NCBI RefSeq assembly: GCF_964355755.1
Contig: NC_092677.1
Span: 26,444,101 to 26,508,100, forward strand
DNA length: 64,000 nucleotides
From: Antedon mediterranea
Lineage: Eukaryota; Echinodermata; Crinoidea; Comatulida; Antedonidae
Reading direction: 5' to 3'
The notes below the pieces were generated by a model, which ran no database searches, was not told the DNA's origin, and saw only the letters and a list, made by a program, of their open reading frames with translations. The position numbers and the translations under genes were made by a program. Each line of letters opens with the position of its first letter. Positions within the stretch are counted from its first letter, which is position 1. Positions 10,556-40,922 of the stretch are shown piece after piece.

Positions 10556-10560
10556 AGGTG

Positions 10561-19883: not shown

Positions 19884-20892
19884 TCAAGAGATTATGCATT
19901 GACTAGAGGAATAATTCTTTTCTTGTATGTGGAATTCTCCCTTCGAGTCAACATAACCTATAACTTGTTTTTGTTTATCTTTATTCCCAGCTGAAATGTG
20001 AAACGAAGAATCACCCTGACCGTAAAGAGACATTTTAACGTCAGTGTAACTTGTTACTTTATCAGCCTCCAACTTGGTCATGAACGCTTGTAGTAGTCTC
20101 CGTAGTCCAGCCTGTTCTTTTGTTTGTTCAGCTCCTTCATTTCCACAGAGTTTTAGAATGATATTTGCCAGTGCACGTTTGTTTATCTCGTCGACCCGAA
20201 ACTTAAAGATAAAAACTAGTTGTTATAAATCATGTTAATATTGCTGTTACGGTATAGGCCACCTCAAAATCTACTAAGAAAAAAAATGTTATGATGTGAT
20301 ATCTACGACCTTCGCTTTCTATGACTATAACTGTGTACGGAATATTTTCAGTTTCACTAGATACTATTTTACATCAAAAAGGAGATAATTATTTAATAAT
20401 AAAAATTTACTTTGCATTGCATATTCCGACAATTTGCACAAATAATGTATAATAATGTTCCTTTAATCAAATTAAAACTATTAAAATATAAGAAACCAAG
20501 GTTATTTTATTATAACATTACACTGAGTAGGACTAATGTTTATTAAGACCTACCATAACTTCTTCGTGTTTTTTTTCGTTCTGGTGAACCATTATAGTGG
20601 ACTTGACACGATTCGTTTTGAATGTAACTTGTTCCCCATTCAAACCACAGAATATTAGTTTCAAGTTAGAAAAACCTTTTTTTCGAAAAGAACTTGTAAA
20701 CTTTGTCCAGTATGATAGAAGATTTGTCCAATCTTCAGAAGGATTATCACGTAAGTCAGCGGACAAGAATTCGTCAAAAACACCAGACATAAATCTGTGG
20801 CTTTCTTCGTCGGCAAGACACGAACAATTTGGAATGTCTATCTTCAACTATAAAAATGCAATATAGCTACTTTAGAGAACAAACAATACATT

Positions 20893-20960
<68 letters not shown>

Positions 20961-22490
20961 ACGGTACTTCACAAAGACTAATATTTATTATTTGTGTTTA
21001 TTTACAGATAAGCATTAATGAAAACATATAGGCCTACGGTAATAATGATAAATGTTTGCTAAAGACCGTAGATTAACATTTAGACTTAAACACAATACTC
21101 TAACCAATAAATGTATTTAATTAATTAAACTTAAGTTAATATAAATGTTATTACATTGACATTTATTCTTCTTTTACTTGGTATCTTCATCTTCAACGTG
21201 TACTCGGCAACTGTCGCTTTGCACACATTGGTATTCGATGTAATCGTACCGACGCTGTCTCCAGTTTTTGCTCGAAGAAAATCTGCGCACTTGTTTGCAA
21301 ATTGATTCAATTCTTTGTTCGTTCGATGGTTTATTTGATCATTTGCAAATTTCTTAAGTTTACTGGCACTGAATTCACTTTCTTTGGGTTCCTATGAAAA
21401 ATAGTGAAGGGGTAATGGCGTATTTATTTTACTAATTGCGAACAATGCCAAATTAAGAAAGGTAAAAAGGTAAAGGTCCCGTATTTATTCAAGTCTGAAC
21501 ATAGGGTAACGAGCTGTTAGGAGCTCATTTTACTAAGCCTATGTATATTATGTGGTATCATTAACAGCTAATTAGACTGGGAGTTGTCGGGAATTGATCC
21601 CAGGTCTCTCTGTATGACAGTCAAGTGTCCTAACCACTAATAAAATAGACCTAAAAAGCAAAAACCCAAGCTGAAAATATAATGTGGGGATTAATCTAAT
21701 CATGTGATAATTAAATACTGCCCTCTATAGGTGTTACTACCCCCTATAATTGTAACAGTCTTTTTCAAATGATTTGCTTTCTTTTGGATTCATGAACCGG
21801 TCAAGGAAGCAGATAATTTTGTCTCTTACTTAATTAAAGATCTGATTAAAAGGACCATACTGATCTCTATTGTTATGCTAAAAACAAATGAAAACCAAAT
21901 ACACCACCGGATCGTGGTAAAGGTGATAAAAGGCGTGTCTTTCCTTTTGTGTTGTCGTCCACATCCTTACATATATTTAAAGATGTAGGCCTATTGTCCC
22001 CCCTTTTTTGCTGAATATGAAATTTTAATGTCGCATAATAGTTATCCACTTTGATTATTGATAAAAAAATGATTTACAGTACTTGAAAAACTGTAATTTA
22101 AAGCAAGCCAACCAATGGTGCCAGCCAATGGGTTTTTGGTTGAAATCAACCATTTATTTTGTCATTTTGTAGGCATAATTAGTGAAAACATTTTTTTTTG
22201 TTTCCACCACACAAACATAGGCCTACACATTGAAATAAATAACATAATATACAACCTAATAATATTAGGATGTAAAAAAAGTATATAAAACGTCTACAGT
22301 TTAGGATAGTATGCATATTCAAGATAATAAAATCTCTAATTTAAAAAAATCTCATTTCTACCAATATTGTACATGTCAGTAAATTACGACGATGTTCAAT
22401 CATAATTATAAATTAAAAGTGGAAATAAAACAATTTTTTTTTTACCTTATTGTCAGCAAATGATTTGGTATTGTGCATTTTCTGAGGCAT
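19884..22490 (-). CDS. CaaX-terminated three-module protein, copy B (intact)
   Basis: Unrecognised family. Four coding exons, all joined in phase 0: 22490-22446 (starts MPQKMHNTKSF), 21391-21155, 20847-20554 and 20201-19884; predicted length 297 residues. The donor of exon 2 (AAT|GTAATA) is weak and was chosen because it gives the same length as the paralogue at 36436-39083. Exons 2-4 encode three similar modules: helical stretches, then a basic strand-rich end such as NLKLIFCGLNGEQVTFK and VKMSLYGQGDSSFHI. The C-terminus is CIIS, a CaaX box of the type usually farnesylated, so membrane attachment is expected. No signal peptide or enzyme motif is visible. It lies head-to-head with the plus-strand gene at 22825, with 281 bp from its ATG to that gene's first donor. 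B differs strongly from copies C, D and F in exons 2-3 but shares the VDEINKRxL start of exon 4. Confidence 0.72.
20896..20957. repeat. (TA)n microsatellite in intron 2 of copy B
   Basis: About 31 uninterrupted TA dinucleotides between exons 2 and 3 of the gene, about 50 bp upstream of the exon 3 acceptor. Confidence 0.95.
21470..21645 (-). mobile_element. tRNA-derived SINE
   Basis: On the minus strand the head reads TTAGTGGTTAGGACACTTGA (A-box like), and 34 bp later GGGATCAATTCCCGAC (B-box like, with the T-stem inverted repeat). The body then runs for about 110 bp and ends in CCTTTACCTTTTTACC. The spacing fits an RNA polymerase III promoter from a tRNA. It sits in intron 1 of the minus-strand gene. 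It is not a functional tRNA because the acceptor stem does not pair. Confidence 0.6.
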
Positions 22491-22771
22491 TGTCGTAGAG
22501 AACTAGGCTCACCTGAACTAAAAGAAGAATTGAGTGAAGCCTACTGTGTGCCAATAAATTTATGATAGATTATATCCTCCAGAAAGTAAATATTCAATAT
22601 TTGTAATGACATGACCAGCGAGTGAGATTACACTGAAAACAGATAATCGGACATAATATATTAATATGATCGAGTTCACGTCATTTCACACAAGACTGAC
22701 AACTCGGCAGACAACATCTCTGCTGCTAAACATTGTTCTTTTGAGCTGAATCACCAAAAACAATTAAAAGT
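22491..22771. promoter_or_regulatory. Shared divergent promoter region of pair 1
   Basis: 281 bp between the ATG of the minus-strand CaaX gene (22490) and the donor that ends the plus-strand gene's putative 5' untranslated exon (GT at 22772-22773). It must hold both transcription starts if the models are right. No TATA box at a convincing position was identified. Basis is gene layout only. Confidence 0.45.
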
Positions 22772-22824
22772 GTAAGTAATTTTTTAATTTGTTTATTACA
22801 GGCTATACAATTAATTTGGTCACA

Positions 22825-24012
22825 ATGATGGACGGCTCTAAAGTAAAATGTACATGATTTTGCAAATCTAAGCTGTGTCTATGAGGAGAGGCGACAGTGA
22901 CGGACTCGTTTGAGTCTATGTCGTTCCTCAAAGTGCTTTCCCGATTGCGTAGTAGAGAATGCAACAGTACCGTATAACGCGAACTGGGTCTACAGTTAAA
23001 ATTTAAGTAGATCGATTTTTTACCATAATCAATATTTACTGTAAAATGTTGAACTAATCCGAATTAGTTCCGCCCCTAATTTCTTTACGAATAATTTAGC
23101 AGCCAGGTAAAATCTGAACTAGATGATACCCTGTCACAATCTGAGGTTCGGTGTCCCTGCATATAAGTTTTAAGTTTGATATTTATTATTGTCTATATTT
23201 TGTTTAGAAGAAACCTGTATAATCGGTTACTGTCCAGCACTATCATCAAACATGAAAACGGTAGGGTATTACGGACAATTTCTATTGTCAATTCTGTCAA
23301 AAAGAATCTAGTTGTTATTCCCAGTGGCATCCACTGCAACATGAAGGAGTGAGATATTCTGATTCAAATCCTGACATGTCATATAAGCCTAAAAAGAATT
23401 TCCAGTTACAAAAATGGATTCGCGCTGAATCATAAAATAAACTCTGAATCATAAAATAAACTCTAAAATCTAAACCCTAACCCTAAAATCTGAAATAAAA
23501 CTCTAAAAAATAAAATGTATAAAAATACATTTTCTTCACAGCTAATTTTACTTCCGTGCTTTTAACAGCTAATTTAGAAAAACATCTTGATTGATTACAT
23601 AATAATTACAATAATAATAGACTTACGTCCTTATTTTATTTTAAAGATAAAGAAAAATTGTGGGGATGAGATTACAGTTGGAGACATTCATAAATTACAA
23701 ATAAAAGATCAAAGATATAGTGATATGGCTATAGATCTGATAATGGTCAAAGGCAAATGGATGTCTAATGCAGAAATTGCTATAGCTTCAGAGCCATCAT
23801 ACTTATTATATACAGGCCAACGTAGTAATAAATTTGGGGTTTATAGACGCGAAGAAGAGAATTACAAATGGACTACAAGGAGAAGGGGTTGGCGGTTATG
23901 GCTGGACGACAAAATATGGAAACCGGCGAAAGATTTTGCCGTTAAAAGAGCGCTACCAGCTGTGGCGGGATTTATTGGCCTCAGTCTTTTGAATGCTATT
24001 GAAGACTTGTGA
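22825..24012 (+). CDS. RGWRLW-family small protein, copy B (intact)
   Basis: Unrecognised family. A probable 5' untranslated exon ends at 22771 (donor GTAAGT). The first coding exon is 22802-22842 and encodes only MMDGSK from the ATG at 22825. The second is 23647-24012 (acceptor TTTTAAAG), joined in phase 0, giving 127 residues. Visible features: CGDEITVGDIHKLQ at residues 10-23; LYTGQRSNKFGVY in the middle, RRRGWRLWLDDKIWKPAKDF about 35 residues from the end, then a basic KR and a hydrophobic ALPAVAGFIGLSLL tail. The tail could dip into a membrane. The tiny first exon and phase-0 intron are repeated in the paralogue at 40265. It is divergent from the CaaX gene on its left and convergent with the CaaX pseudogene on its right. 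Role unknown. Confidence 0.7.
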
Positions 24013-25385
24013 TTTATTTTTGTATTATAGAATGTGTAATTAGAATTAACCATGAATACAAATATATGATTTATGTACCAAAAGAATAGGACATATGCCT
24101 ATATAATAATAAATTGGAGAGGCATAGAAATCTTTCTCTCTCTTTCTCAATGTTTTAAACGTGCTTTTAGTTATTTTTTTCTTAGTTAATTTTTATAATA
24201 ATTTACAAACTGAGCTCCGGGAATGCAAAATTGAAAATACATTTAAACTTAAATTGAAAAGATAGGCCTATTAAACTTTTAGCCTTCGATATATTTGTTT
24301 TAAACGATGATTGTTATTGTCAATTGTTGCAATGTATTTAATTATTAAACTAGTTTTAACATGAAGCGAGATAAGTAGAAATAAGTGGAAACTTAATGGA
24401 ATACCTGAAGTGAAAAGTCATCATTAACTCATATATGGGAGATATTAAATATATAAACAGATAAGAATGAGATAGTGCTTGTGATATTATAGTCATATTG
24501 TACAATATTTTTACTGCTAAAAAGTTAGAAACAAAAGGGTGCTTTCACATAGGGCGTATGATTACAAATGAATAAATATTGAATTAATAAATTATGAAAT
24601 CAAACAGGAGCTGTTGTGTCGTTCAATTATCTGGAACTTTGAATTTGAATCAACGAATCCTATGACGTGATTTGCATCAGGTGATTTACCCGCCACCACA
24701 TGGAATGACGTATCATCTTTACCACAGAGAGAAAGTTTAGTGTTTTCCCAACAAATGTTATTTCGTTTCTCCAGTGCAGTTATACACGCCTGAATGAGTC
24801 GTCTGAGGGCGGCTTATTCAGTTGTTTGACTGACGCCCTCATTACCGAGTAACCAAAGCATGATTCGACCCAAAGTACGTTTATTAATTGCATCAACTTC
24901 AAACTACAGAAAGAAAAAAAGGTTTGTAATATTCGATATGTAAATGTCATGATTATAACAGAATTGTTTAGAATTCAGAATTAAAATAATCAGTTTAAAA
25001 ATAATTATAGACTATTTCAACCAATATTGTCATGTGAAACGCCGCGTTTATCAAATGTTTAACTTACAACAATCTCCCCTTGTAGTTTAGCATTCAAAAC
25101 TGCAGCAATAGTTGTTTTAATCGTACCGCATTTTATCTTGATTCTTTCTTCATACTCTCCATATAATCTCAACTGTGCAGTACGCATTGCTTCTGGTCTT
25201 ACATTCTTGCTGAACTTTGACAAACTTTCCAGAAGTTCTTTCCAAGTTAAAAATCCAGACGCTGATAATTTGTTCAATAGTGACGATATACCTCGTTCGC
25301 AAGCTGGATCAGAGAGTCTATTTACTTCCACAGTTACCTGTTGAATGAATAGTAGGCTACATCAAAGCATGAATATATCATGTAC

Positions 25386-25475
25386 AGGTAGGCCTATAAC
25401 CCGGTAATATCGTAGGCCTAACCCGGTAATATCGTAGGCCTAACCCGGTAATACCGTAGGCCTAACTCGGTACTC
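25386..25475. repeat. Minisatellite with unit CGTAGGCCTAACCCGGTAATAT
   Basis: Three to four copies of a ~22-bp unit built around TAGGCCTA, in intron 2 of the disabled copy just upstream (minus strand) of exon 3. The corresponding place in the paralogue at about 37600 has only one degenerate unit. Confidence 0.75.
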
Positions 25476-26020
25476 AATTCCAAATTAAAACAATGGGAAC
25501 GTAGGCCACGACGGGTCCTTCGAAGGCACTCCAATATCCCATGGATGATTTGACTAATTTAAGTAATTTTTATTATTATACCTTAGGCCTATAATCATTT
25601 TTCCACTGACCAAGGTATAACCAATGCAGGACCTCTAGTTGGTCAAGAGAAAGGGAGATCGCACAGGCGTACAAATAACTTATTTGTATCGAATTAACTA
25701 CAGCAAAAATAATATATATACGTATAGTAGAGTGAGCCACATTAACTAGTTTAAATCAAACATGACATAAAATATGACTTTCCATTTAATTAACCATTCT
25801 TGAGTAGTCCCATAGTGGCAATTGAGATATGCTTAACAGAGAATGCGAGTATCTAGACCTACTAGTGACGTAACGAGAAGTCACGCATGAGTACCCAGTG
25901 CGTTTATCCTTGCTCGATAATTACACGCAGTGTTTTATGCGCGCCGTCTCTTGCGTTACAAAAATTGAACTCGAATAAAAAGGAAGACGTCATCACAAAA
26001 TGAATTCCACCTCAAAATCT

Positions 26021-26144
26021 AAAGCTCTGTCTACACTATCAAACTAGTTTGACAACAAAAGTGTGATGTGCCCAAATATGGTAGTGATATGCCCAAACAT
26101 GGTAGTGATATGCCCAAACATGGTAGTGATATGACATCATCATG
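26021..26144. mobile_element. Palindromic MITE, left half, split by a LINE
   Basis: Starts AAGCTCTGTCTACACTATCA and carries three tandem ATGGTAGTGATATGCCCAAA units. The right half (ATGGGCACATAATGTTTGAT ... TAGAC) is found at 30481-30518 beyond the LINE. The full-length relative in the same intron of the sister gene is at 38224-38386. Confidence 0.8.
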
Positions 26145-26313
26145 GATAATAATGAGGGCGCTATGTAAATGAAGACGTATAGTTACTGAGCTCCGTCAAA
26201 GCTAAATCTTATCGAACTCCCAAAAGTAAGTTAAAGGATGAAATAAACTGAACGTAAGTTTTAAACAGCTTCTACAATCAAATAAAAGTAAAATAAGAAG
26301 TCGATTGTAAAAA

Positions 26314-27124
26314 ATGAGTGCTACTAGAGCGAAATCTAAACAAATATCTGAAACTACTGAGGCAACGCCTATGCCACGTCAGCTTAAAGTTCCCGCGACT
26401 ACCGACTTGAAGACTGACATCTTCTGAAATTAAGGCCCTGCGGAAAGATCTAAAAGAGATGTTTGTTGATATTAATAAAAAAAATCGAAGATGGAATATC
26501 GTCGATCAAATCCAATCAACAAGTACTAATTGAAAGAATAACAAAAGTGGAAGAAACACAACGTATTATGGACCAGTCATTGGAATATTACACAACATCC
26601 ACTACGGAAACTCAAGCGAGTGGAAGTAGATTAAATACACGTATTGACAACATTGAAACAGAACTGAAGGAGAAAAATAAGCAAATTAGTAACCTAGAAG
26701 GGGATATTCATAGAATGGAAAGATATTCAAGAGGATTTAATTTACGATTTGGAGGAATAAATGAAGAAGACAACGAAAATACACTAGATAAATTAAATAC
26801 ACTTATAAGCGATAAACTACACTTGAAGGATATTAACATTGAAAACGCCCATAGAACCGGTAAGCAGACCAGAGGAGACCAAAAACCTAGGCAAATAATT
26901 GCTAAATTTATCTATAGGCCAGAACGAAACGAGGTTCTTAAGAAGGTAAATTCACTGAAAAATATAGATTTTTATGCAATGGAGGACCTTACAGCAGCAG
27001 ATGCCAAGAAGAAACGTGAGTACCGAGACATAATGTTGAAAGCATACAATGAAGGAAGACATCCTGTATTTAGAAATGGATCATTATATATAGATGGGAG
27101 ACTATACCGTGAACCTACAAAGTG
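26314..27124 (+). pseudogene. LINE ORF1 protein (frameshifted)
   Basis: Starts MSATRAKSKQISETTEATPM. A frameshift near 26420 and an A-run slip near 26480 break the frame; from 26463 it is open to the stop at 27122-27124. A coiled coil (RITKVEETQRIMDQSLEY and following) precedes an RRM-like region with ERYSRGFNLRFGGI and later RQIIAKFIYRPER. This is the L1-ORF1p-like nucleic-acid-binding protein found in many invertebrate LINEs, which would coat element RNA if intact. Confidence 0.75.
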
Positions 27125-27463
27125 ACCAGACCACACTCTGTTAGTAAGAAACACACTTATTTAACATGAGATGGTATTTATGTAATTTGGACAAAATACT
27201 ATCCATGTCTTGTTATTATACACAGCCCCACATTGCTGCTGTGAACTGTTGCATACAGTGCATTCATATAAGTTGGGGTTGTTTATAAAATTGTATATTT
27301 TGTATTACTACATTCATTAATAAGGGGTCACGGTAAAATAAAATACTTTATGACGGGTAGCTAATGTACAGATATAGCAAATAAGGTTATATTTATTATC
27401 AAATATTTCTTTTGTCATTAGGCCCTATAATTAACTGATATTTATTTATATTAACGAAATTAT

Positions 27464-29023
27464 ATGTTTTCAATTCTAAATATTGATAATTTTAATTACG
27501 AAGACGAAAATACAACCGCATTTAACTATAAGGAAAACTATTACTTTAGTATTGATACATTTAAATCCACGTTCAGTCAAACGTCAACTAATAGTTTTTC
27601 TATGTTTGCATTAAATTGTAGAAGTATTGTTAACAAATTTGAAGAATTTAAAAATTATGTATCCTCTCTCGATTTTGAATTTAATGTAATAGGACTTACT
27701 GAAACTTGGCTTTCAAGCAAACATCACCTTGGTTTATATACACTTCCAAACTATACACCTATCTTTAAAAACAGAGAAACCCAGACAGGGGGATGTGTAG
27801 CATTGTACATACACTCAAATATATCATATCAAATAAGAAATGACTTGTCTGCTATGATAAACGAGAGAGAGTGCATTATAATTGAATTAAAAAATAATGA
27901 TAAATCAATTATATGTGGAATAATCTACAGGCCCCCTAAAGCCCATATTCCAACATTTAATAATCAACTTAGTGAATTAGTGCACATGATAAACAATGAA
28001 AATAAAAAGGCATACCTAATGGGTGACTTTAACCTAGATCTACAAAAATATAACTGTGACAATAATGTTCAAACTCACGTAGACAACATGCTAACAGAAT
28101 CTTTCATTCCACTAGTCAATAAACCCAATCGAATCATAAAAGATACCGCAACAGTAATTGACAATATTTATACAAATTATCAGGAATTCCAAAATATTAA
28201 CACAGGGATATTAGTTAACGACATATCTGACCACTTTGCAGTTTTCTGCATGGATGATTCAGAAAATTATTCATTACCACGATCAGAAAAATTTATAATA
28301 AAAAGAAGCTATACTGATCAACAAAAACGGCAATTTAGACTTGAATTACAGGGCTATGATTGGCAATATGTAACTAACATTGAATATGAAAATGAATCAT
28401 ATAAACGTTTCTCAGATTCTTTAAAAACAATGATAGATAAGCATTTCCCACTAAAAAGAGTTAGGTTAAAAGTAGATACAATTAAATCCCCGTGGATAAC
28501 ATATGGAATTCAAAAATCTCTTTGTACCAAAAATAAATTATACATCAAATATAAACAGAAACCAACAGATATAAATAAATCTAAATATAAGAAATACAAA
28601 AATAAGTTAACATCAATAATAAGAGAAAGAAAAACTACTTATTACAAAAATGAATTTGAAAAGCACAAGAGTAATATAAAGAAAACATGGGGTGTCATAA
28701 ACTCATTATTAGGTAGGAAGAAACATCAAGACATGCCTCACAAAATGAAAATCAACTCCCATCAACTTAATGACCCAACATCCATAGCCAATGCGTTTAA
28801 CACATACTTTATAAATATAGGTGACCAAATGACAGGTGATGATAACCGTAATAGTAACACCGAATATAAAATACAACATGACATTTTGAATTCAATGTTT
28901 TTTAGAGCTGTATCCGAGTTCGATATCATTAAATACATTAATGACTTAAATGTAAATAAGTCAAGTGGTTGTGATGACATTGGTACCTTTTATATAAAAA
29001 ATAACTCGGATATACTGGCTATA
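27464..29023 (+). CDS. LINE ORF2, endonuclease part
   Basis: 520 codons. APE-type endonuclease motifs in order: ALNCRSIVNKFEEF, GLTETWL, GIIYRPP, GDFNLDL and SDHFAVFC. These supply the Asn, Glu, Asp and His residues expected of the target-nicking nuclease. A linker follows that contains KKTWGVINSLLGRK and SSGCDDIGTFYIKNNSDIL. The frame stops at 29023 because a ~160-bp insertion separates it from the reverse transcriptase. Confidence 0.8.
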
Positions 29024-29183
29024 TAAATATAGTTTATTTTATATCATTGTTGTTACTTTGGGAGTACGGAACCTGAACTCTTGTTATAGTGATTAGGTTC
29101 ACTTTTAGGTTCCTGCCTACTCCCTTAGTTTCTGTGTTTTGTTTGTTTGTAACTGGTTTTTGGCAATAAATAATAATAATAAT
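29023..29183. mobile_element. ~160-bp insertion inside LINE ORF2
   Basis: Protein homology stops at NNSDILAI and resumes at KPLSHIINVSLQSG, so the DNA between is foreign. It contains an inverted pair (GGGAGTACGGAACCTGAAC and GTTC-TTAGGTTCCTGCC-TACTCCC) and ends GGCAATAAATAATAATAATA. The hairpin and the TAA-repeat tail suggest a SINE-like retroposon in plus orientation. Confidence 0.55.
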
Positions 29184-30216
29184 AAACCGTTATCTCATAT
29201 AATCAATGTATCCCTTCAATCGGGTGTATTTCCTTGTCAACTAAAAATTGCTAAAACAATTCCTGTGTATAAAAAAGGAGCAAGGGAGAACATAGAAAAT
29301 TATAGACCGATATCGATATTACCATGTATATCTAAGGTATTTGAAAGGGTCGTATATGACCAAACAATCGCTTTTTTGTGTAAATATGAAATGTTACATG
29401 AATCTCAATATGGATTCAGGGCAGGTCATTCAACTAACCACGCCCTCCTACAAGTCCTTGATAAAATAACAACAGCCGTTGACAACAAGCAGTTTATGAT
29501 TGGCGTATTTTTGGATTTATCCAAGGCGTCCGATTCGATAGATCATGAATTATTGCTCACAAAATTGCCCCATTATGGAATAAGAGGCGTGGTTCTTGAT
29601 TGGTACCGTAGCTACCTTAGAGAAAGACAACAATTCGTACAAATTGGGAAGTGTCAGTCTGTAACCAAAATAATAAAACAAGGCGTTCCACAAGGGTCAA
29701 TCCTTGGACCCCTGCTGTTTTTGATATTCATAAATGACATGTTTTCTGTAAGTAACGTCGTTGATTTAATAATGTTTGCAGATGATACGAATATGTTTTT
29801 ACAACACAATGATATCGTCACTGCCTTTACAATAATGACAAATGAACTAAATAAAATTGAGAAATGGTGTAAAACTAATAGATTAAATATTAATACAACC
29901 AAGACTACGTATATGTTATTTAGTGGAAAGAATACCAACATTGACACATCCCAATTTGTACTTTCAATAAATAGAGTTTCAATAGATAGAGTACCATATA
30001 CTAAATTTCTCGGTGTCATCATTGATGAGAAACTGAACTTTAGACACCATACAAATGCAGTTTCTTGTATGGAATCAACTTATAAGAAATATAAGAGAGA
30101 GTGAAAATATATCAATATTTAAAAAACTATTACTAAATAAATGCATTAATAGTTATAAAGAAACAATATATCTTTGCGAAAACAACATTTGTAAAATATG
30201 TCTAACATTAACTTAA
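29184..30216 (+). pseudogene. LINE ORF2, reverse transcriptase part
   Basis: Reverse transcriptase motifs in order: IPVYKKG, RPISILP, QYGFRAGHST, LDLSKASDSIDH (a first catalytic Asp region, with Ser where Phe is usual in SKAFD), GVPQGSILGPLLFLIFINDM and FADDT. The frame follows the usual family up to the FRHHTNAVS region, then jumps near 30068 to VWNQLIRNIRESENISIFKK in another frame. About 130-150 codons of the thumb/C-terminal region are therefore deleted. The true C-terminal stop is at 30214-30216. Confidence 0.8.
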
Positions 30217-30480
30217 TTAATTACATTTTCGTATATATTCTGAGACTGTGAGGTATACATATATATTATATTATAGTACGTTGTATTTTCGTTCATTTAT
30301 TTACTACATGAAAACATTTTTGTAATATATTTGTAAATTTATATTTTAAGTTAGGGTGCCACAGATTAAAAGCTTTGCTTGCTTGTGGTTACCCTGTTTT
30401 TCACACTTTATTGTACTTAATTTTTTATTTATATTTTTATGAATGTTGTGTGAAAAATAAAAGAATCAATCAATCAATCA

Positions 30481-30518
30481 ATATGGGCACATAATGTTTG
30501 ATAGTATAGACAAGGGTT
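30481..30518. mobile_element. Palindromic MITE, right half
   Basis: Right end of the element split by the LINE (see 26021-26144). It has ATGGGCACATAATGTTTGAT followed by AGTATAGAC; the middle part (ATCACATTTTTTGTC in full copies) is missing. Confidence 0.7.
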
Positions 30519-30922
30519 AAGCTTAACTTACGGTTGTTTCAACGCCTCCGTCTTTTGTCTCTCTTAGCTTCAGTTTACATTCGTTAGATACAGCTTTGAT
30601 CACAAACAGCTGGGTGGGGAGGGTAACATTATAGGCCTATAATCATGGAAACGAGAATTGTAACGAAAATATTTTTCAAACTGTATGGCATCTCTACATA
30701 TAGAGAAAAATATACAGAAAATTCTGGTCTAGAAAAGTTGGATGGCAATTTGTCCCCTTTCGGGTGGTGATATCCCCCCTCCTGCCACCGGACTAATAAC
30801 CCATCTAAAATATATCGCACGTGATTTAGGCCTAGATTAATTTCCTTATTTTTGAGAGAAGTTGCAAGGCGCTGAATTCTGTTTCCAAACAGTACAGTTT
30901 TGTTCCTCCCACTGATGCCAGT

Positions 30923-31146
30923 GGCAGTCTTCTCTAGCATCCAAATATATGCTGGGTTCGACTGTTTTTAACCCCTCCTCCCACCCGGCCCCAGAGAGCA
31001 GAGTGGTTTCAGTCACTGTCAGTCGCATCCAAGAGGCAGTCTTCTCTAGCGTCCAAATATATACTGGGTCCGACTGTTTTTAACCCCCCTCCCACCCGGC
31101 CCCAGAGAGCAGAGTGCAGGTTTCAGTCACATGGTTTTAAAATACT
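30923..31146. repeat. 112-bp tandem duplication
   Basis: Two adjacent copies beginning GGCAGTCTTCTCTAGC (30923 and 31035), each with CCAAATATATRCTGGGT and CACCCGGCCCCAGAGAGCAG. It occupies the place where exons 1-2 of the disabled CaaX copy would be expected. The open frames over it are repeat artefacts. Confidence 0.75.
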
Positions 31147-31164
31147 ATCCTGCCCTCAACGTTT

Positions 31165-31486
31165 AAATTTAGTTAGACTGTACGCCAATTTGTCCTTACG
31201 CCAATTTTTGTCCTTACGCTAATTTTTGTCCTTTCGGCAATTTAACCATACGGCAATTTGTTCATACGGCAATGTGTGCGTTTGTTGTCCGTACGGCAAT
31301 ATTTGTTTTTCACACGATGAATTATGTCTTTAACGCCATTTGTTTGGCTTACGGGAGCGAAATTGTTCGTACAGCAACGTTTGTCTATTTTGGCCCTAAT
31401 GGCCGCCCATATTTGTTTGGCTTACGGGAGCGGAATTGTTCGTACAGCAAGGTTTGTCTATTTTGGCCTTAATGGCCGCCCATACG
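31165..31486. repeat. Compound minisatellite at a gene breakpoint
   Basis: First, degenerate 18-bp units (TTACGCCAATTTTTGTCC, drifting to ATACGGCAATTTGTTC); then about two copies of a 72-bp unit containing GGCTTACGGGAGCG and TTGGCCYTAATGGCCGCCCA (31346 and 31418). It abuts the truncated plus-strand gene fragment that begins at 31487. Confidence 0.7.
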
Positions 31487-31648
31487 GTAGAGCTAATAAA
31501 TTTGGGATTTATAAACGCGGAGGCGTGTACACATAATAGTACAAGGAGTAGAGGTTGGCGGTTATGGCTGATGGACAACGTATGGAAACCGGCGAAAGAG
31601 TTTTTCTTTAAAAGAGCGATACCCGCTGTGGGTATGAGACACGAATAA
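31487..31648 (+). pseudogene. RGWRLW-family copy D, 3' fragment
   Basis: Encodes ANKFGIYKR, then after a frame break RSRGWRLWLMDNVWKPAKEF and KRAIPAVG before a stop. It aligns with 23825-23970 of the intact gene. The N-terminal half is replaced by the minisatellite at 31165-31486. Sequence downstream (31649-32179) continues to match the flank of the intact gene (24013-24591). Confidence 0.85.
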
Positions 31649-32179
31649 AAAAAAACTTTAAATACTAATATTTGATTTATAATGTACCAAAAGAACAGGA
31701 CATAATATATAGTGAATTCGACAGGCATGGAAATCTTTCTCTGTTTATGTTTTAAAAGTGTTTTTAGTTATATTTTTTCTATTTTTATAATAATTTAAAC
31801 TGAGCTCCGGGAATGCAAAATTGAAAATACATTGAAAAGATATATTTTAAACTTTTAGCCTTCGATATATTTGTTTTAAACGATGATTGTTATTGTTAAT
31901 TGCTGCAATGTATTTAATTATTAAACTAGTTTTAACATGAAGCGAGATAAGAAGAAATAAGTGGAAACTATTCCTCACATAGAATACCAGAGGTGAAAAG
32001 TCATCATTAACTCATATATGGGAGATATTAAGTATATAAACAGATAAGAATGAGATAGTGCTTGTGATATTATAGTCATATTGTACAATATTTTTAATTT
32101 ACTGCTAAAAAGTTAGAAACAAAAAGGTGCTTTCACACAGGGCGTATGATTACAAATGAATAAATATTGAATTAATAAA
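31649..32179. repeat. Duplicated intergenic segment
   Basis: Matches 24013-24591 over its length, including GAGCTCCGGGAATGCAAAATT and CATGAAGCGAGATAAG. It links the 3' end of the plus-strand gene to the 3' end of the minus-strand gene in both places, so the duplicated unit spans the tail-to-tail junction. Confidence 0.85.
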
Positions 32180-33177
32180 TTATGAAATCAAACAGGAGCT
32201 GTTGTGTCGTTCAATTATCTGGAACTCTGAATTTGAATCAACGAATCCTATGACGTGATTTGCATCAGGTGATTTACCCGCCACCACATGGAATGACGTA
32301 TCATCTTTACCGTAGACCGAAAGTTTAGTGTTTTCCCAACAAATATTATTTCGTTTCTCCAGTGCACTTATACACGCCTGAATGAGTCGTCTGAGGGCGG
32401 CTTGTTCAGTTGTTTGACTGACGCCCTCATTACCGAGTAACCAAAGCATGATTCGACCCAAAGTACTTTTATTAATTTCATCAACTTCAAACTGTAATAA
32501 GAAAAGGTTTTAAATATTTGATATGTAGGCCTAAATGTAAATACACGTTTAGAAGAAAAAGAATCATTTAAAAAAAAGACTTAGTATTTAATGTAACATG
32601 CATTGCGCCGCAATGAGTTTATCAAAATAACGTGCGCTTTAAGTGTTAATATTACATAGCCTATGTAAATACGTGAACGTGATTGGTTGAAACTGCATTA
32701 CATGACTACCGCTGCGAGGATCGTAATATAATATATCCTCGAGTACGATGATATTGACTGGGTAATTTTCGCGTAATTATCGTGTCCCTGTCATTTAACA
32801 TATAAAATCCAGCCAATTCTTGAGTACGATGATATTGACTGTGTAATTTTCGTGTGGCATGCAACACTCGCGGTTGGCGGTATATAAACAAAAGTCAACT
32901 ACTGAGACTTGAACTCGCGAAGATTTTTCCACACCATTACAAGACAACGTTTTACAAGCCGCGCTACGCAACTTGCTTTGATGAAATTAATCAACTAATT
33001 TAAAAACTCTGTATAATGTTAACTTACTACAATCTCCCCTTGTTCTTTATCATTTAAAACTGCAGCAATAGTTGTTTTAATCGTCCTGCATTTTATCTTG
33101 ATTCTTTCGTCATACTCTCCATATAATATCAACTGTGCAGTACGCATTGCTTCTGGTCTTACATTATTGCTGAACTT
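32180..33177 (-). pseudogene. CaaX-family copy D, truncated
   Basis: Exon 4 (32491-32180) is fully open with the CLIS end. Exon 3 keeps its donor but only its 3' part (33177-33028, KFSNNVRPEAMRTAQLILYG onward); at 33177/33178 it is joined abruptly to the first exon piece of the plus-strand gene. Exons 1 and 2 are absent. The 3' half (KSPDANHVIGF) matches copy C, while the intron between exons 3 and 4 matches copy F almost base for base, so this is a recombinant. Confidence 0.85.
32680..32960 (-). mobile_element. tRNA-related SINE-like sequence in the copy D intron
   Basis: The minus strand has GCGTAGCGCGGCTTGTAAAA (A-box like) and GCGAGTTCAAGTCTCAGTAG (B-box like) about 50 bp apart, then a body with two ATCGTACTC-ended tandem stretches. 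The same insertion lies at 36930-37230 in copy F, so it predates the duplication. Confidence 0.45.
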
Positions 33178-35011
33178 GGTTGGTGTGCTGTCGCCACGGT
33201 CCAGCGAGATCACCTTGAGAGGTATGAGGCTGTCGTCAAGACCCAGCAGGAGATCAGAACGTAGAGAAATACAAAGACTCCGCCAATGCGTATAAAGAGG
33301 TTTGTAAATATTTGTTCCCAAATAATTAATTTATCTACGGTTATTCTTATTTATCTGAACGCTTTATAAAGACGTGTTCAGATACTTTTTATAAAGCGTT
33401 ATGTTTGTTTATAGTTTTTTTAACATTGTGTATTTTCGTACAAACAATAACATTTACCGTATATCTTTCGTTCTTCAATCTGTCTACCAGACGTCCAAAA
33501 AAGCCATGGAGGTCCTTAAAGAAAACACCAAAGCCGAACGTAAAGAACATGCCAGAAAAACGCGTGAGGCTGAAGCCAACGCAAAGGCAGAACGTGAAGT
33601 AAAAGCCAAGAGACTTAGAGCAGAACGTGAAGAACATGCCAGAAGAATGCATGAGGCTGAAGCCAAAGCCCAGGCCGCACGTGAAGAATATGCCAGACGA
33701 ATACGCGAGGCAGAAGCCGCAGCAGCTGCTGCTGCTGCTGCTGCCCAGGGCAGAACGTGAAGAGCGTGCCAGACAAAAACGCGAGGCCGAAGCCGCAGCT
33801 GCTGCCAGGGCAGAACGTAAAGAGCGTGCCAGACGAAAACGCGAGGCCGAAGCCGCAGCTGCTGCCAGGGCAGAGCGTGAAGCATTTGCCAGAATACGCG
33901 AGGACGCTGCCAGGGAAGCTGCTGCTGCTGCTGCTGCCACGGCAGAACGTGAAGAGCGTGCCAGACAAAAACGCGAGGCCGAAGCCGCAGCTGCTGCCAG
34001 TGCAGAACGTAAAGAGCGTGCCAGACGAGAACGCGAGGCCGAAGCCGCAGCTGCTGCCAGGGCAGAACGTGAAGCATTTGCCAGAATACGCGAGGACGCT
34101 GCCAGGGAAGCTGCTGCTGCTGCTGCTGCCACGGCAGAACGTGAAGAGCGTGCCAGACAAAAACGCGAGGCCGAAGCCGCAGCTGCTGTCAGTGCAGAAC
34201 GTAAAGAGCGTGCGTGCCAGACGAGAACGCGAGGCCGAAGCCGCAGCTGCTGCCAGGGCAGAACGTGAAGCATTTGCCAGAATACGCGAGGCCCGTGCCA
34301 GGGGAGCTGCTGCCAGGGCAGCACATGAAGCTAGAGCTGAAGCCGAACGAAGGGTTTGTACAAAATGTATTTCCCTTAATTATATCTGTCAGAATGTTTA
34401 AATTCCACTTAGTTGAGCAAAAATATATTTTAAGTGTACGTACTCTGAACCCTTATGTAAACTTTTATAACTATTTTATAATTTCTTTTACTAATAATAC
34501 AATTATTGATCATTATAAGTCCAGTGTCATTAAAAACAGTTCGCTATGACTACCATGATTATATTATTGTAGTTTAATTTTAAAATACCTTGTATATTGA
34601 TTGATTTTTCACAATGTCATGAAACTTTAATTTAATAATAATAATTTTTTTTTTATTTTAACACAGAGAAGAGTGTCAAAACACATTAATTGTTATAGAA
34701 AGATTACGATTGGGCACGCTAATGATCTACAGATAGATGATGATTTGAAGGATGCTACAAAGCAACTGATTAGCCAATTACCGGATCATGCTCTTAAAGA
34801 TGCATTAATTGATATAAGGGCAACATCAACCAGCCCAGCAAGCTCACTCTATGCAGGGGGAAAAACTAATAAATTTGTCATTTATAAAAGTGGCGGAGAC
34901 ATTGATTTTGAGACGAGGGCAAAAAGTTGGCGGCTTTGGTTCCACACCGGATTAGTCTGGGTAAGAAATCTCTTCAGAAGTGACGAAAATCAAGAAGCTA
35001 TTTGCTATTAA
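33178..35011 (+). pseudogene. RGWRLW-family copy E fused to a repeated charged helix, frameshifted
   Basis: Three exon segments: 33178-33299 (coiled-coil-like HLERYEAVVKTQQEIR, a frame break, then EKYKDSANAYKE; donor GTTTGT), 33491-34353, and 34667-35011, joined in phase 0. The middle exon starts TSKKAMEVLKENTKAERKEH and is almost wholly Ala, Glu, Arg and Lys, predicting a long single helix or coiled coil. Its frame shifts at an extra C near 33745 and at a 4-base CGTG duplication near 34210. The last exon (RRVSKHINCYRKITIGHAND ...) has LYAGGKTNKFVIYK and RAKSWRLWF, clearly the same domain as the genes at 22825 and 40265, but ends ENQEAICY without the hydrophobic tail. Alternatively, the indels are sequence errors in a repeat and the gene is active. 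Confidence 0.6.
33750..34325 (+). repeat. 192-bp coding tandem repeat (64 residues), three copies
   Basis: GCAGAACGTGAAGAGCGTGC recurs at 33750, 33942 and 34134, exactly 192 bp apart. Each unit encodes AEREERARQKREAEAAAAAR, AERKERARR.., and AEREAFARIREDAAREAAAA. The unit is a multiple of three, so it extends an open helix. The composition also leaves antisense frames open, giving long spurious frames on the minus strand. Confidence 0.85.
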
Positions 35012-36435: not shown

Positions 36436-39083
36436 TTACGAAATTAAACAGGAGCTGTTGTGCCGCTCAATTATCTGGAATTCTGAATTTGAATCAACGA
36501 ATCCTATGACGTGCTTACGATCACGTGATTTACCCGCCACCACATGGAATGACGTATCATCTTTACCATAGAGAGAAAGTTTAGTGTTTTCCCAACAAAT
36601 GTTATTTCGTTTCTCCAGTGCACTTATACACGCCTGAATGAGTCGTCTGAGGGCGGCTTGTTCAGTTGTTTGACTGACGCCCTCATTACCGAGTAACCAA
36701 AGCATGATTCGACCCAAAGTACGTTTATTAATTTCATCAACTTCAAACTGTAATAAGAAAAGGTTTTAAATATTTGATATGTAAATGTAAATACACGTTT
36801 AGAAGAAAAAGAATCATTTAAAAAAAAAGACTTAGCATTTAATGTAACATGCATTGCGCCGCAATGAGTTTATCAAAATAACGTGCGCTTTAAGTGTTAA
36901 TATTACATAGCCTATGTAAATACGTGAACGCGATTGGTTGAAACTGCATTACATGACTACCGCTGCGAGGATCGTAAATCATTATATCCTCGAGTACGAT
37001 GATATTGCCTGGGTAATTTTCGCGTAATTATCGTGTCCCTGTCATTTAACATATAAAATCCAGCAAATTCTTGAGTAGGCCTACGATGATATTGACTGTG
37101 TAATTTTCGTGTGGCATGCAACACTCGCGGTTGGCGGTATATAAACAAAAGTCATCTACTGAGACTTGAACTCGCGAAGATTTTTCCACACCATTTACAA
37201 GACAACGTTTTACAAGCCGCGCTACGCAACTTGCTTTGATGAAATTAATCAACTAATTTAAAAACTCTGTATAATGTTAACTTACTACAATCTCCCCTTG
37301 TTCTTTATCATTTAAAACTGCAGCAATAGTTGTTTTAATCGTCCTGCATTTTATCTTGATTCTCTCGTCATACTCTCCATATAATATCAACTGTGCAGTA
37401 CGCATTGCTTCTGGTCTTACATTATTGCTGAACTTTGACCAACTTTCCAGAAGTTCTTTCCCAGTTAAAAATCCAGACGCTGACAGTTTGTTCAAAAGTG
37501 ACGATATGCGTCGTTCGCAAGCTGGATCAGAGAGTCTATTTACTTCCACAGTTACCTGTTGAATCATGAATAATACAAATCAAAATATATAATGTAGGCC
37601 TTCCCGATAATATTCCAAGTTAAAACAATGGGAATTTAGGCCACGACGGGTCAGTTGAAGGCACTCCCATATCGGATGGCTGATTTTAAGTAATTTGTAT
37701 TATTAAAAATCATTACAATCATTTTTCCACTTACCCAAGGTATAAACAAGGCCGGACCACTATAGTCGCCCAAAAGAAGAGAGATCGTACAGACGTACAA
37801 ATAACTTATTGTTTATCGAATGCAAAAATAAACCATGCGCCGTATAGTAGCCACATTAATTAGTTTAAATCGAACTATCGATTTATCGAATAAAATATAA
37901 TGACTTTCCTTTTAATAATTAACCATTCTTGAATAGTCCCATGGTGGCAATAGAGATATGCTTAACATACTTTTCAGAGGATGCGAGGCCTACTAGTGAA
38001 GTAACGAGAAGTCATGCATGAGTACCCAGCGCGTTTATCCTTGCTCGATAATTACACGCAGTGTTTTATGCGCGCCGTCTCTTGCGTTACACTGATAATA
38101 TACACATTCCCAATTTGGTATTGAAATATAAATTATTATTTTAAACTGAATTATACAGTTATCTTGAAATGAGCTCGCATAAAAAAGAAGTCATCACCAG
38201 AAAATGAATTCCACCTCAAAATCTAAAGACCTGTCTACACTATCAAACTAGTTTGACAACAAAAGTGTGATGTGCCTAAATATGGTAGTGATATGTCCCG
38301 ATATGGTAGTGATATGACATCATAATGTCCATATATGGGCACATCACATTTTTTGTCACATAATGTTTGATAGTGTAGACAATGCTTACGGTTGTTTTAA
38401 CGCCTCCGTCTTTTGTCTCTCTTAGCTTCAGTTTACATTCATTCGATACAGCTTTGATCACAAACAGTTCAACTTTGTTGTACGATTCCAATGTTCCTTT
38501 ACCAATGCCATTGTCTGTCTCCTCGCATATCCAATCTGCGCATGCGTGCGCGTATTTTCGTTGCTTCAATCTGGTATCTTTGAAACACGAATCACGTCTT
38601 AACTTTTGAAATAGCTTTTCAATTGATGATTCGAGTAACAATCTGGTTAAAACATCAGTGACTTTATCAGAAATCTGGAGATCAAATAAAATGTATGGAA
38701 TTATTTTAAAGGCCTATACTAGGATGTCGCCAAAAGGTTTTTGAAGTTGGGTTGGAACCGTTTAACACATCTCAATAGCTATATCTACAATATCAAACTT
38801 AATGAACATGTGATGTGCCTAAGTTTGATAGAGTTTAGACATAGAGCTTAATGAAAATCTTTTGCCTACGTATACAATTCTCCTTCAAAACATGCCCTTT
38901 TTAAAAACTAAAGTTTACAGAGAGAAAATCTATACCAATATATTTTGGCTAACTGGGTTTAATTAGTGTTTTTTTGCCTACCTGTGACTCGTTCGTTGGT
39001 TGTTGGGCGTGGTCGTTGTAATTTGGCGTAGAACCTGTAAGCCACCGTAAACCATGTAAAGCCGACGGTATCCACCCCGACAT
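36436..39083 (-). CDS. CaaX-terminated three-module protein, copy F (intact)
   Basis: Best model of the family: exons 39083-38982, 38674-38390, 37555-37286 and 36747-36436, all phase 0 with good GT/AG sites, giving 322 residues. Residues 1-34 (MSGWIPSALHGLRWLTGS...) form a short amphipathic leader. Modules occupy about 35-129, 130-219 and 220-322, one per exon. Each has helices followed by a strand-rich end: VELFVIKAVSNECKLKLRE, AQLILYGEYDERIKIKC, TKLSLYGKDDTSFHVV. The C-terminus is CLIS (Cys319), a predicted prenylation box. No catalytic motif is visible. It is head-to-head with the plus-strand gene at 40265 and tail-to-tail with copy E. A MITE sits in intron 2 and a SINE-like repeat in intron 3. 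Function unknown; membrane-tethered adaptor or effector is an inference. Confidence 0.78.
36930..37230 (-). mobile_element. tRNA-related SINE-like sequence in the copy F intron
   Basis: Sister of 32680-32960, nearly identical. A-box-like and B-box-like segments lie at 37200-37230 and about 37155-37180 on the minus strand. Confidence 0.45.
38224..38386. mobile_element. Palindromic MITE in intron 2 of copy F
   Basis: Complete copy: CTGTCTACACTATCAAACTA at the left, a centre with ATATGGTAGTGATATGACAT and TCCATATATGGGCAC, and AATGTTTGATAGTGTAGACA at the right. Its right end lies only a few bases from the exon 2 donor (38389). Confidence 0.85.
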
Positions 39084-39921
39084 AATTGTTATGTGCTGAA
39101 CTAATTATGCCACTTTACAATCTAGAACAAAATAACAAATATCAAATTTTAAATTAATTAATTACATAAAACTATTACACAGTTTAATATAAAAATGACT
39201 ATGATAAATAGGCCTACGGTATCGTTATTGAGGAAGTACGCCTATAAACACGCAACGCCGCAATGACAATACTTAAATAGTAGGGTAGTGTATCTTAAAT
39301 ATTTCTTACATTACATTCCTATTTTGAACTATTTCAGTTTCATCTAAAATGAAGATGAAAACCAAAGCTTTGTTCCTTATAAGTTTAAAAATTATAATCA
39401 ACATGTTAAAATATATTTTACCTTTCTTATGACGATTTTAGCCCAAAACAATCGCTCGTTTGATGTACGAATCTTTCCAAAATGTATTATTCCTGTGAAT
39501 AATTCAGCGTAAATATTTCTTATCATTCGAAGAAGCTAGTGTTGCGATGAGCAAGAATACCGAAGGCGTTAACGAATTCCCGTGGTTCAAAAACTCATTT
39601 GCCAATGCGCAACCAATCGTTCACGATGCGTCGTTAAACGCGATGAATCGAACACCCGATGAAAGAATTTCAAATTACTTAGGATAAATTGGCAACGAAT
39701 TATCTTGAGATGAGGCTCATTGGGAATTAAATGACTCTTCTTAACACTTTCAAAAATTCATCAATCATCATTCTTTAATTCTCATGACGTTTTATAGTCT
39801 TGAACAATATTGAATCAATAATACAATTACCATTTCACTAATAAGGTTGAAATGAACCAATTATTTGAATCTTTCGTTTGAACGTTGAAAACATTCATAC
39901 TTTTGCAGTCTTTCCGAAAAG
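39084..39921. promoter_or_regulatory. Shared divergent promoter region of pair 4
   Basis: Lies between the ATG of the minus-strand CaaX gene (39083) and the donor of the plus-strand gene's untranslated exon (CGAAAAG|GTAAGT at 39921/39922). It contains GAAACTGAAA on the minus strand at 39341-39332, matching the core of an interferon-stimulated response element, but a 10-mer like this is expected by chance in 64 kb. Confidence 0.4.
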
Positions 39922-40264
39922 GTAAGTACTAACAAAATATTAACATTGTTAATTATTTTAAATAATTGTAAAATGATGGTATTTTGAATGTTTCATCACC
40001 GTAATCTCTGGAAAGTCTTCAAATAGTTAAAATGTTTATAACTGTTTAATTATAAGTTTAGTTTGGTATTTTAAACTCCATGCATTATAGTAGGTACTGT
40101 TGATAAAATACATAAAGGCAGTGTAGTGTCAGATAGTTAGAATGTACTTTGTCATTAACACTAAACACACTAATAGTTCGATGATTAAATGAATGCATGT
40201 GCGCTGCTAAACATCTGTTTTGTTGTTTTTTTTATATTGCAGTAAATGCGAGGCAGATCAAAGT

Positions 40265-40922
40265 ATGGCTGAGGTAAATATATCGAAAAAACAATATCAA
40301 CATTTAATAAAGTTTAGTAGGGTACACCGCATATCGGTGAATGTTTCCCGATACAAAAAAAGCTGCATCGAAACGTTTTACAGGCGATGTGTATATAGTT
40401 GTAGTAAACGTTATTACATTAAATTCTGTTTTCAGATGAATAAAAACAAATCCAAATGAATTTTATTTTGTTTTCTAGCCTAATCAACCGATCGACGCCG
40501 CTGTGACGGTAATAGATTGCGGAGAAGAGGTGACGTTTGGAGACGTTCACCGTCTCCGAGCTACAATCGGAAACGAAAACGACGACAGCAATAAACTATT
40601 AGACGTGGCGTTTAATTTCGTAGCCAAAGAACCAAAATGGATTTTCAAAGACGCTGAAATTGCATTTTCGATGCCGAATCACTGCTACATCATGCATTCT
40701 GGGAAAAGAACCAATCAGTATGTTATCCTGATCGGAGAATCTGGACAAGCCGAGGTAAGACTTCGGGAACGAGGCTGGAAATTATTTATGCGGGATCAAG
40801 CTGTAGCTATCTGGAACTGGGCTTGGGAGAATCAAGGCACCATCATAGGCCTGGCTCAACTTATATCTATCCTTGTTGGCCGAAGAGAGGCAATTGAATT
40901 CAGAGAAAATACATCCAGTTAA
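40265..40922 (+). CDS. RGWRLW-family small protein, copy G (intact)
   Basis: An untranslated exon ends at 39921. The coding exon 40243-40273 supplies only MAE from the ATG at 40265 (GAG|GTAAAT). The main exon is 40479-40922 (acceptor TTTTCTAG). They join in phase 0 to give 150 residues. Motifs: CGEEVTFGDVHRLR near residue 15, WIFKDAEIAFSMPNHCYIMH, SGKRTNQYVILIGESG, RERGWKLFMRD, then a Trp-rich segment and a hydrophobic GTIIGLAQLISILVG stretch before a polar tail. It diverges from the B copy (K for R and F for W in the core motif) but keeps the same two-exon start, so it is a true paralogue. Base composition is less AT-rich than its surroundings, as expected for coding sequence. Function unknown. 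Confidence 0.72.

What the first reader, a model, noticed from the sequence alone, without database searches (positions are those of the whole stretch)
19884..40922. Four head-to-head pairs of two unrecognised gene families
Seen: a minus-strand family (three-module, CaaX end) and a plus-strand family (R-G-W-R-L-W domain) alternate as -,+,-,+,-,+,-,+ across 21 kb. The divergent pairs are 19884-22490 with 22825-24012; 24592-30608 with 31487-31648; 32180-33177 with 33178-35011; and 36436-39083 with 40265-40922. Two pairs look intact and two are damaged. Known: long-lived divergent pairs that duplicate as a unit often encode partners (paired immune receptors, toxin-antidote couples). Inference: the two products act together, perhaps in defence or genetic conflict, given the fast turnover. 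This is the best candidate for an undescribed system here.
Basis: partly seen in the sequence, partly recalled or inferred. Interest (0 to 1): 0.9.

Follow-up and report, generated by a model that had tools for sequence, protein, structure and literature searches.

The report
Feather-star cluster of two unknown families
In the feather star Antedon mediterranea two unrecognised gene families sit interleaved on opposite strands in a gene cluster that reaches well beyond the window, one family held steady and the other changing faster, which makes the cluster a good but untested candidate for an immune or conflict system.

Summary
The window is Antedon mediterranea (crinoid). The alternating minus/plus genes are real; the fourth pair matches two database proteins (322 and 150 aa). 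Neither family has a convincing match in Pfam, the PDB or fold searches. Family A (minus) had relatives only in crinoids; family B (plus) was found only in Antedon.

The finding is the right end of a 157-kb cluster with 7 A genes holding all three modules (all minus) and 27 plus-strand B domains or remnants, in genes of 1 to 5 domains. One more A(-)/B(+) pair lies on another contig, in the same divergent order.

That divergent pairs duplicate as a unit holds outside the window (two segmental copies, and the second locus), not inside it. There A2, A3 and A4 are 93-95% identical but their B neighbours do not match, the copied block joins B and A tail-to-tail, and pair 3 is a rearrangement junction.

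A is constrained (dN/dS 0.41-0.58) and ends in CaaX. Close multi-domain B paralogs show no net constraint (1.31); deep B comparisons often do. Best guess: an intracellular immune or conflict locus. Function is inferred, not shown.

The parts
36436..39083 (-). A4, intact three-module gene: exons 38982-39083, 38390-38674, 37286-37555, 36436-36747; 322 aa; ends CLIS (CaaX)
   Evidence: identical to P0002 [Antedon mediterranea]; GT/AG splice sites
40265..40922 (+). B4, intact single-domain B gene: exons 40265-40273 and 40479-40922; 150 aa; Trp-rich hydrophobic tail
   Evidence: P0001, 100% identity; splice donor and acceptor seen
19884..22490 (-). A1, apparently intact three-module gene: exons 22446-22490, 21155-21391, 20551-20847 (or 20554-20847), 19884-20201; ends CIIS
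   Evidence: one open frame on splicing; profile hits to modules 1-3; not among the 5 proteins found with A4
22825..24012 (+). B1, single-domain B gene; domain exon 23647-24012; first exon 22825-22842 tentative
   Evidence: profile hit 3.8e-57; model open
24592..30636 (-). A2, pseudogene: module 3 at 24595-24903 with in-frame stop, module 2 at 25068-25337, module 1 remnant 30488-30636
26454..30104 (+). LINE-like element (coiled-coil, endonuclease- and reverse-transcriptase-like frames) inside A2
   Evidence: ORFs, read by eye; flanks colinear with A4
31487..31648 (+). B2, remnant of the 3' half of a B gene, closest to B1 (82% DNA identity over 141 bp)
32180..33177 (-). A3, truncated copy of A4 (module 3 and half of module 2), 96% identical, match ends at 33177
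33178..35011 (+). B3: B domain exon 34661-35008 downstream of Ala/Arg/Glu-rich repeats in broken frame (about 33600-34400); the stretch begins at the A3 breakpoint
   Evidence: profile hit 7e-52; repeat array; frames
1137..1854 (-). A0, degenerate A remnant, no B neighbour in the window
18885..18950 (-). short A module-3 remnant
   Evidence: (E 7e-5)
23826..24942 (.). convergent block (end of B1, spacer, end of A2) duplicated at 31494-32527 (end of B2, spacer, end of A3)
   Evidence: 82% over 141 bp and 90% over 903 bp

Best explanation
A crinoid-specific, fast-turning-over gene cluster built from two exon-modular families that travel together. SHOWN: A is a three-module protein, one module per exon with phase-0 joints, whose C-terminus is CaaX-like in 10 of 10 ends on C8 (8 CIIS/CLIS, 2 CTIF) and in 3 of 3 Anneissia proteins; it is under purifying selection. 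B genes carry one to five exons, each an about 80-residue domain with a phase-0 start, closed by a Trp-rich tail; close multi-domain paralogs change amino acids at least as fast as silent sites while most frames stay open. The cluster grew by segmental duplication of mixed A/B blocks, with LINE-like insertions and truncations. INFERRED: A is prenylated and sits on the cytosolic face of a membrane as the constant partner; B is the variable partner that recognises something foreign or selfish through its repeated domains and acts through its tail, at or in a membrane. The pair would be a lineage-specific intracellular immune or conflict module. Binding of A and B, prenylation and an immune role are not shown.
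For: Linkage of A and B at two of two loci, both with A(-) left of B(+). Strand segregation: every A hit minus; B plus apart from one remnant. Two recent copies of whole A-spacer-B units. A dN/dS 0.41-0.58 in the 15 comparisons among A10, A6, A7, A8, A9 and A1 (Fisher p at most 0.0025 in all but the two near-identical pairs), against 1.31 for B5a/B5c over 420 codons; raw replacement:silent counts of B5a/B5c differ from three A comparisons, chosen by me out of 21, at p 0.0025, 0.0002 and 0.00009. In B, replacement excess lies in columns not conserved in the deep B set (1.57, p 0.024) and not in conserved columns (0.96). CaaX ends. Tryptophan 8.8% in 10 B tails against 1.2% in B bodies. Phase-0 acceptor at 19 of 19 exons of four multi-domain genes and phase-0 donor at 14 of 15 internal ones. 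A gene with a death-effector domain lies inside the cluster (Pfam DED E 5e-4, below its cut-off; PDB best match c-FLIP, E 0.0011) and RING-NHL genes adjoin it.
Against: No single B comparison exceeds dN/dS 1 significantly (best p 0.067) and some are below it (B5a/B4x domain 1 0.58); among 21 comparisons of single or last B domains the values run 0.25-1.16 (one undefined), 8 of them below 1 at p 0.01 or less, 6 of these involving B4, so B is constrained in the long run. The pooled pairs are not independent. A and B histories of the head-to-head pairs do not agree once recent copies are dropped. A10 has no B within about 22 kb. The C9 A copy lacks the CaaX end. Only 4 of 10 B tails are clearly hydrophobic (mean 0.48 or more on the Eisenberg scale). 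B was not found in Anneissia, which has A, though the search's length limit could hide multi-domain B. No expression or interaction data.
Confidence: 0.4

Rival explanations
1. An ordinary lineage-specific tandem cluster of two families that happen to be neighbours. Alternating strands follow from repeated duplication of any block that holds one A and one B; close B copies are simply redundant and under relaxed constraint. There is no partnership.
For: Tail-to-tail pairing correlates as well as head-to-head; the block copied in the window is convergent; many copies are broken; no B dN/dS is significantly above 1 and deep B comparisons are often below 1.
Against: The only dispersed A and the only dispersed B found in 354 Mb lie within 15 kb of each other on C9, with open module frames; multi-domain B genes keep phase-0 splice sites; among close B copies the replacement rate is lower in conserved columns (dN 0.103) than elsewhere (0.172).
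Confidence: 0.4
2. Each head-to-head A-B pair is an obligate two-component unit sharing a bidirectional promoter, such as a toxin-antidote or a paired sensor/executor.
For: Two whole head-to-head units copied at 93-98%; divergent neighbour for 6 of 7 three-module A genes; C9 pair also divergent.
Against: Distances from A module 1 to the B domain run from 1.6 to 7.4 kb on C8 and 10.9 kb on C9, mostly long for one promoter, though first exons are largely unknown (A1-B1 starts, if right, are 334 bp apart); no similarity between the spacers of the window pairs; partners mismatched in the window; A10 has no partner nearby.
Confidence: 0.12
3. The two families are diverged copies of one module family: B is a single A-type module (helix followed by four strands) that acquired a tail, so the cluster holds one superfamily on two strands.
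For: Predicted order of elements is alike (A modules H-H-E-E-E-E; B H-E-E-E-E); the hhalign path of A module 3 against B runs colinear over 58 columns (P 0.018); both have one module per exon with phase-0 joints.
Against: Not significant: 6 of 60 column shuffles reach the hhalign score and 36 of 120 in a simpler test on fewer sequences; B model has pLDDT 40.
Confidence: 0.25

Closest known systems
Anneissia japonica uncharacterized proteins LOC117111683, LOC117113139, LOC117111706 (P0003-P0005)
   Same: Homologs of A over all three modules, 39-49% identical to A4, CaaX-type end kept
   Different: Undescribed themselves; genomic context and any B partner could not be seen
Plant paired NLR immune receptors in head-to-head orientation (PMC9528088; only the search listing with the start of its abstract was seen)
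   Same: Working analogy: two divergent, fast-evolving intracellular partners, one constant and one variable (recalled)
   Different: No NB-ARC, LRR or other NLR domain in A or B
DED/TRADD-N expansions of marine invertebrates (PMC8195603; passages read)
   Same: Lineage-specific, diversifying intracellular families in echinoderms and other marine animals; a DED gene with weak TRADD-like_N similarity sits in this cluster
   Different: A and B themselves match neither DED nor TRADD-like_N in Pfam
Guanylate-binding proteins (recalled; papers only listed)
   Same: CaaX-bearing multi-module immune effectors in gene clusters (recalled)
   Different: No GTPase family among the Pfam hits of A

Membership tests
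CaaX-prenylated proteins | C-terminal Cys-aliphatic-aliphatic-X at the very end | tested here: met
   C8 A ends: 8 of 10 CIIS or CLIS, 2 of 10 CTIF; 3 of 3 Anneissia proteins CIIS or CIIL; 0 of 1 on C9
CaaX-prenylated proteins | enzymatic prenylation and membrane attachment | not testable with these tools
   needs biochemistry
NLR-type paired immune receptors | NB-ARC/NACHT and LRR domains | tested here: not met
   none among the Pfam hits (E up to 1) of 5 A and 19 B members
Head-to-head co-duplicating gene pair | divergent neighbour order | tested here: met
   6 of 7 three-module A genes on C8 and the C9 pair
Head-to-head co-duplicating gene pair | partners share one duplication history | tested here: inconclusive
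   two recent unit copies and Mantel r 0.61 over 7 pairs, but mismatch in the window and r 0.09 over the 5 pairs without A8 and A9
Head-to-head co-duplicating gene pair | co-expression | not testable with these tools
   no transcript data
TRADD-N / DED superfamilies | sequence match of A or B to DED or TRADD-like_N models | tested here: inconclusive
   neither among the Pfam hits of A or B; that does not exclude a shared fold
Toxin-antidote pair | one product harmful, the other neutralises it | not testable with these tools
   needs expression tests

The most novel reading that the evidence does not exclude
A previously undescribed two-component intracellular defence system of crinoids: a constant, prenyl-anchored three-module platform (A) and a diversifying repeat-domain partner with a membrane-active tail (B), kept as a linked unit and expanded beside death-domain and RING-NHL genes.
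Probability: 0.2. Interest if true: 0.85.

Novelty: new variant of a known kind. Interest (0 to 1): 0.55.

Why it matters
Crinoids are the sister group of all other living echinoderms (recalled), and none of the titles and abstract starts listed by the searches describes these genes; (the three Anneissia locus names) found no paper. Two protein families without recognised domains, found at only two loci, together at both, with different selection regimes, give a small and testable system. If A and B bind and respond to infection, this is a new kind of paired intracellular defence; if not, it is a clean case of how mixed tandem clusters mimic paired systems.

Tried and rejected

A-B homology: hhalign P 0.65 on few sequences, 0.018 on deeper alignments, but 6 of 60 shuffles reach the score, so it is not claimed. 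Modules 2 and 3 of A do look like repeats of each other (0 of 60; 1 and 3 of 120); module 1 was not significant with either.

Weak library hits, each in one member only, discarded: Pfam TssR_M E 0.0025 in 1 of 19 B; PADLOC Csx1/Csm6 E 0.008 in 1 of 5 A, others E 0.026-0.04 in B; NCBIfam, A only, E 0.019. PHROGs was not run.

Shared divergent promoter: spacers of window pairs 1, 2 and 4 show no match to one another at E 1 or less.

dN/dS: a first run compared equal-length exons without aligning them and gave false high values; replaced. In one search the B4 exon start was typed one base late, so that model did not match; 40479 is right.

Left out of the Mantel test: the A2/B2 and A3/B2 pairs (B2 too short), A10 (no B), and pairs with A remnants at 26354502 and 26357909. 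B5b is left out of the column test.
Full report
WHAT THE WINDOW IS. The 322-aa A4 and 150-aa B4 proteins are identical to two entries named 'uncharacterized protein [Antedon mediterranea]', so the window is from this feather star. It lies at G000:C8:26444101-26508100 of a 354-Mb, 18-contig genome. The protein database gives 28,587,047 bases for the contig of these proteins, the genome held here 28,582,174, so two assembly versions are likely.

THE OBSERVATION. Eight genes or remnants alternate -,+ from 19.9 to 40.9 kb. A1 and A4 are open over four exons with phase-0 joints. B4 is intact and B1 is open. A2 carries a stop and a LINE-like insertion; A3 is A4's 3' half, its match ending at 33177; B2 is a remnant; B3 has a good B exon (34661-35008) behind repeats in broken frame. 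Two further A remnants at 1.1-1.9 kb and 18.9 kb had been missed.

THE WHOLE CLUSTER. I fetched C8:26250000-26568100 (with the window) and searched six frames with profiles of A modules 1-3 and of B. All hits at E 0.01 or less lie between 26327855 and 26484890. Seven A genes have all three modules and all are minus: 26327855 (A10, which is P0006; its first exon is a 100% match), 26363611 (A6), 26381144 (A7), 26387226 (A8), 26430541 (A9), 26463987 (A1), 26480539 (A4). First exons of A6 to A9 are not settled. A remnants are minus too. One search lists 26 plus-strand B exons; with the B2 remnant that makes 27. The one minus-strand B is a broken remnant at 26439210. Left of the window B genes have several domains: five at 26371712-26377591 (B5a), 26395983-26401903 (B5b) and 26416604-26418761 (B5c), four at 26426911-26428313 (B4x, whose second exon runs into a stop). 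All 19 of these exons have a phase-0 AG at the domain start, and 14 of the 15 internal ones have a phase-0 donor. Their first exons were not determined, so the multi-domain genes are models.

GENOME-WIDE. B4 finds 25 matches, 25 on C8 in the cluster. A4 finds 20, of which 19 in the cluster and 1 on C9. P0006 finds 28, of which 25 on C8 and 3 on C9, the three modules of one A gene at 8805180-8809201, minus. A B5a domain finds 28, of which 27 on C8 and 1 on C9 at 8820072, plus. So the one dispersed A and the one dispersed B lie within 15 kb of each other, again divergent. The C9 B frame is open for 185 aa with a different linker and a strongly hydrophobic tail. The C9 A frame ends without CaaX. 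The tool calls its counts lower bounds.

HOW THE PAIRS EVOLVED. Segmental copies 26362611-26377993 and 26386223-26402299 (98%) contain A6-spacer-B5a and A8-spacer-B5b; 26380670-26386766 and 26430080-26436119 (93-96%) contain A7-spacer-B and A9-spacer-B, one of the two B copies having lost its tail. These are head-to-head units copied whole. In the window it is different: A2, A3 and A4 module 3 are 93-95% identical, yet B3 and B4 share 26% and B2 is close to B1; the copied block (23826-24942 against 31494-32527) joins the ends of B and A. Over seven head-to-head pairs A and B distances correlate (r 0.61, p 0.007; r 0.77, p 0.014 without A3/B3), but not after dropping the recent copies A8 and A9 (r 0.09, p 0.41, five pairs, little power). 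Six tail-to-tail pairs give r 0.74, p 0.026, and r 0.63, p 0.018 without A8. Head-to-head order is therefore common but has no special claim from these data; what is robust is that A and B blocks travel together.

SELECTION. Nei-Gojobori estimates with kappa 2. A paralogs: 0.41-0.58 in 15 comparisons among A10, A6, A7, A8, A9 and A1, and 0.24-0.48 in 6 against A4, where silent sites approach saturation. B5a against B5c: 1.31 over 420 codons (143.7 replacement, 37.3 silent), single domains 1.07 to 2.39. Against B4x: B5c domains 1-3 together 1.57; B5a domains 0.58, 1.96, 1.89; fourth-domain comparisons 0.95 to 1.92. None differs significantly from 1. Domains within one gene: 0.71 to 1.74, none significant. 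B5a/B5b differ too little to tell. Twenty-one comparisons of single or last domains: 0.25-1.16 and one undefined; 8 are below 1 at p 0.01 or less. Split by columns conserved in five deep B sequences, eight pooled close pairs give 1.57 elsewhere (p 0.024) and 0.96 in conserved columns; the pairs are not independent. So B is less constrained than A among close copies, constrained over the long run, and diversifying selection is possible but not proven.

PROTEIN FEATURES. A: N-terminal exon variable; modules 1-3; CaaX-type end in 10 of 10 C8 ends and in 3 of 3 Anneissia proteins. P0003 pairs with A4 (49%), P0004 and P0005 with A1 and P0006 (48%), other combinations between those two groups 29-39%. 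So A split into two subfamilies before the Antedon and Anneissia lineages did (inference). B: consensus IDCGSEITLGDVQSL...ATKRLICxTPxWVLKDAEIxI...YSLYAGxKxNxFxVYRxEDGSIKT, with Cys, Thr, Ala, Ile and Gly invariant in 19, then tails with 8.8% Trp; 4 of 10 tails are clearly hydrophobic, others amphipathic or weak. No signal-peptide or membrane predictor was available.

NEIGHBOURHOOD. A plus-strand gene at 26409764-26411968 inside the cluster has a death effector domain (Pfam E 5e-4, below its curated cut-off; PDB best c-FLIP, E 0.0011) and a weak TRADD-like_N match (E 0.054-0.15). Left of the cluster are minus-strand RING/NHL-type frames at 26310171-26326033; of two scanned both match RING and one NHL. 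Right of it is a PX-RhoGAP gene. Such neighbours fit, but do not show, an immune locus.

LITERATURE. Searches for the species and genome (20 of 44 papers listed), for Anneissia and lineage-specific genes (12 of 16 listed), for crinoid immune expansions (4 of 4), for echinoderm head-to-head/CaaX clusters (9 of 9) and for the three Anneissia locus names (none found) list no title or abstract start that describes these families; the papers were not read for it. From PMC8195603 I read passages; of the others only listings.

VERDICT. On checking, I softened the statement on B constraint; the odds were already set with those values in hand and are unchanged.

Noticed in passing
G000:C8:26409764-26411968 (L014:9765 to L015:1969), plus: Gene with a death effector domain (tandem by eye) and two downstream modules, one with weak TRADD-like_N similarity, embedded in the A/B cluster between two five-domain B genes.
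   Followed up: partly
G000:C8:26310171-26326033 (L025, L026), minus: RING/NHL (TRIM-like) frames in tandem left of the cluster; several by eye, two scanned in Pfam.
   Followed up: partly
window 43549-57128, minus: PX and RhoGAP exons of an ARHGAP32/33-like gene (name by eye), the right neighbour of the cluster.
   Followed up: partly
G000:C9:8805180-8820614 (L035, L036): Second A/B locus; its A ends in a Trp-containing tail instead of CaaX, its B has a repetitive linker (repeated CQTTN) and a long hydrophobic tail. Only 5.2 kb of it were read.
   Followed up: partly
window 33600-34400: Ala/Arg/Glu-rich repeat array (60- and 192-bp units) of a coiled-coil-like gene in broken frame, next to the B3 domain and a rearrangement breakpoint.
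   Followed up: partly
window 4700-16800: Mosaic of direct and inverted duplications, about 74-95% identical, without clear genes.
   Followed up: no
window 59275-59712, 54431-54782, 48927-49486: Minisatellites with 20-, 30- and 70-bp units.
   Followed up: no
P0003 N-terminus and B tails: GWMQWIYNLVIKP of an Anneissia A protein resembles the RGWRLWLDDKIWKP tail of B1 and B2 (tblastn E 0.6-1.7, not significant).
   Followed up: no
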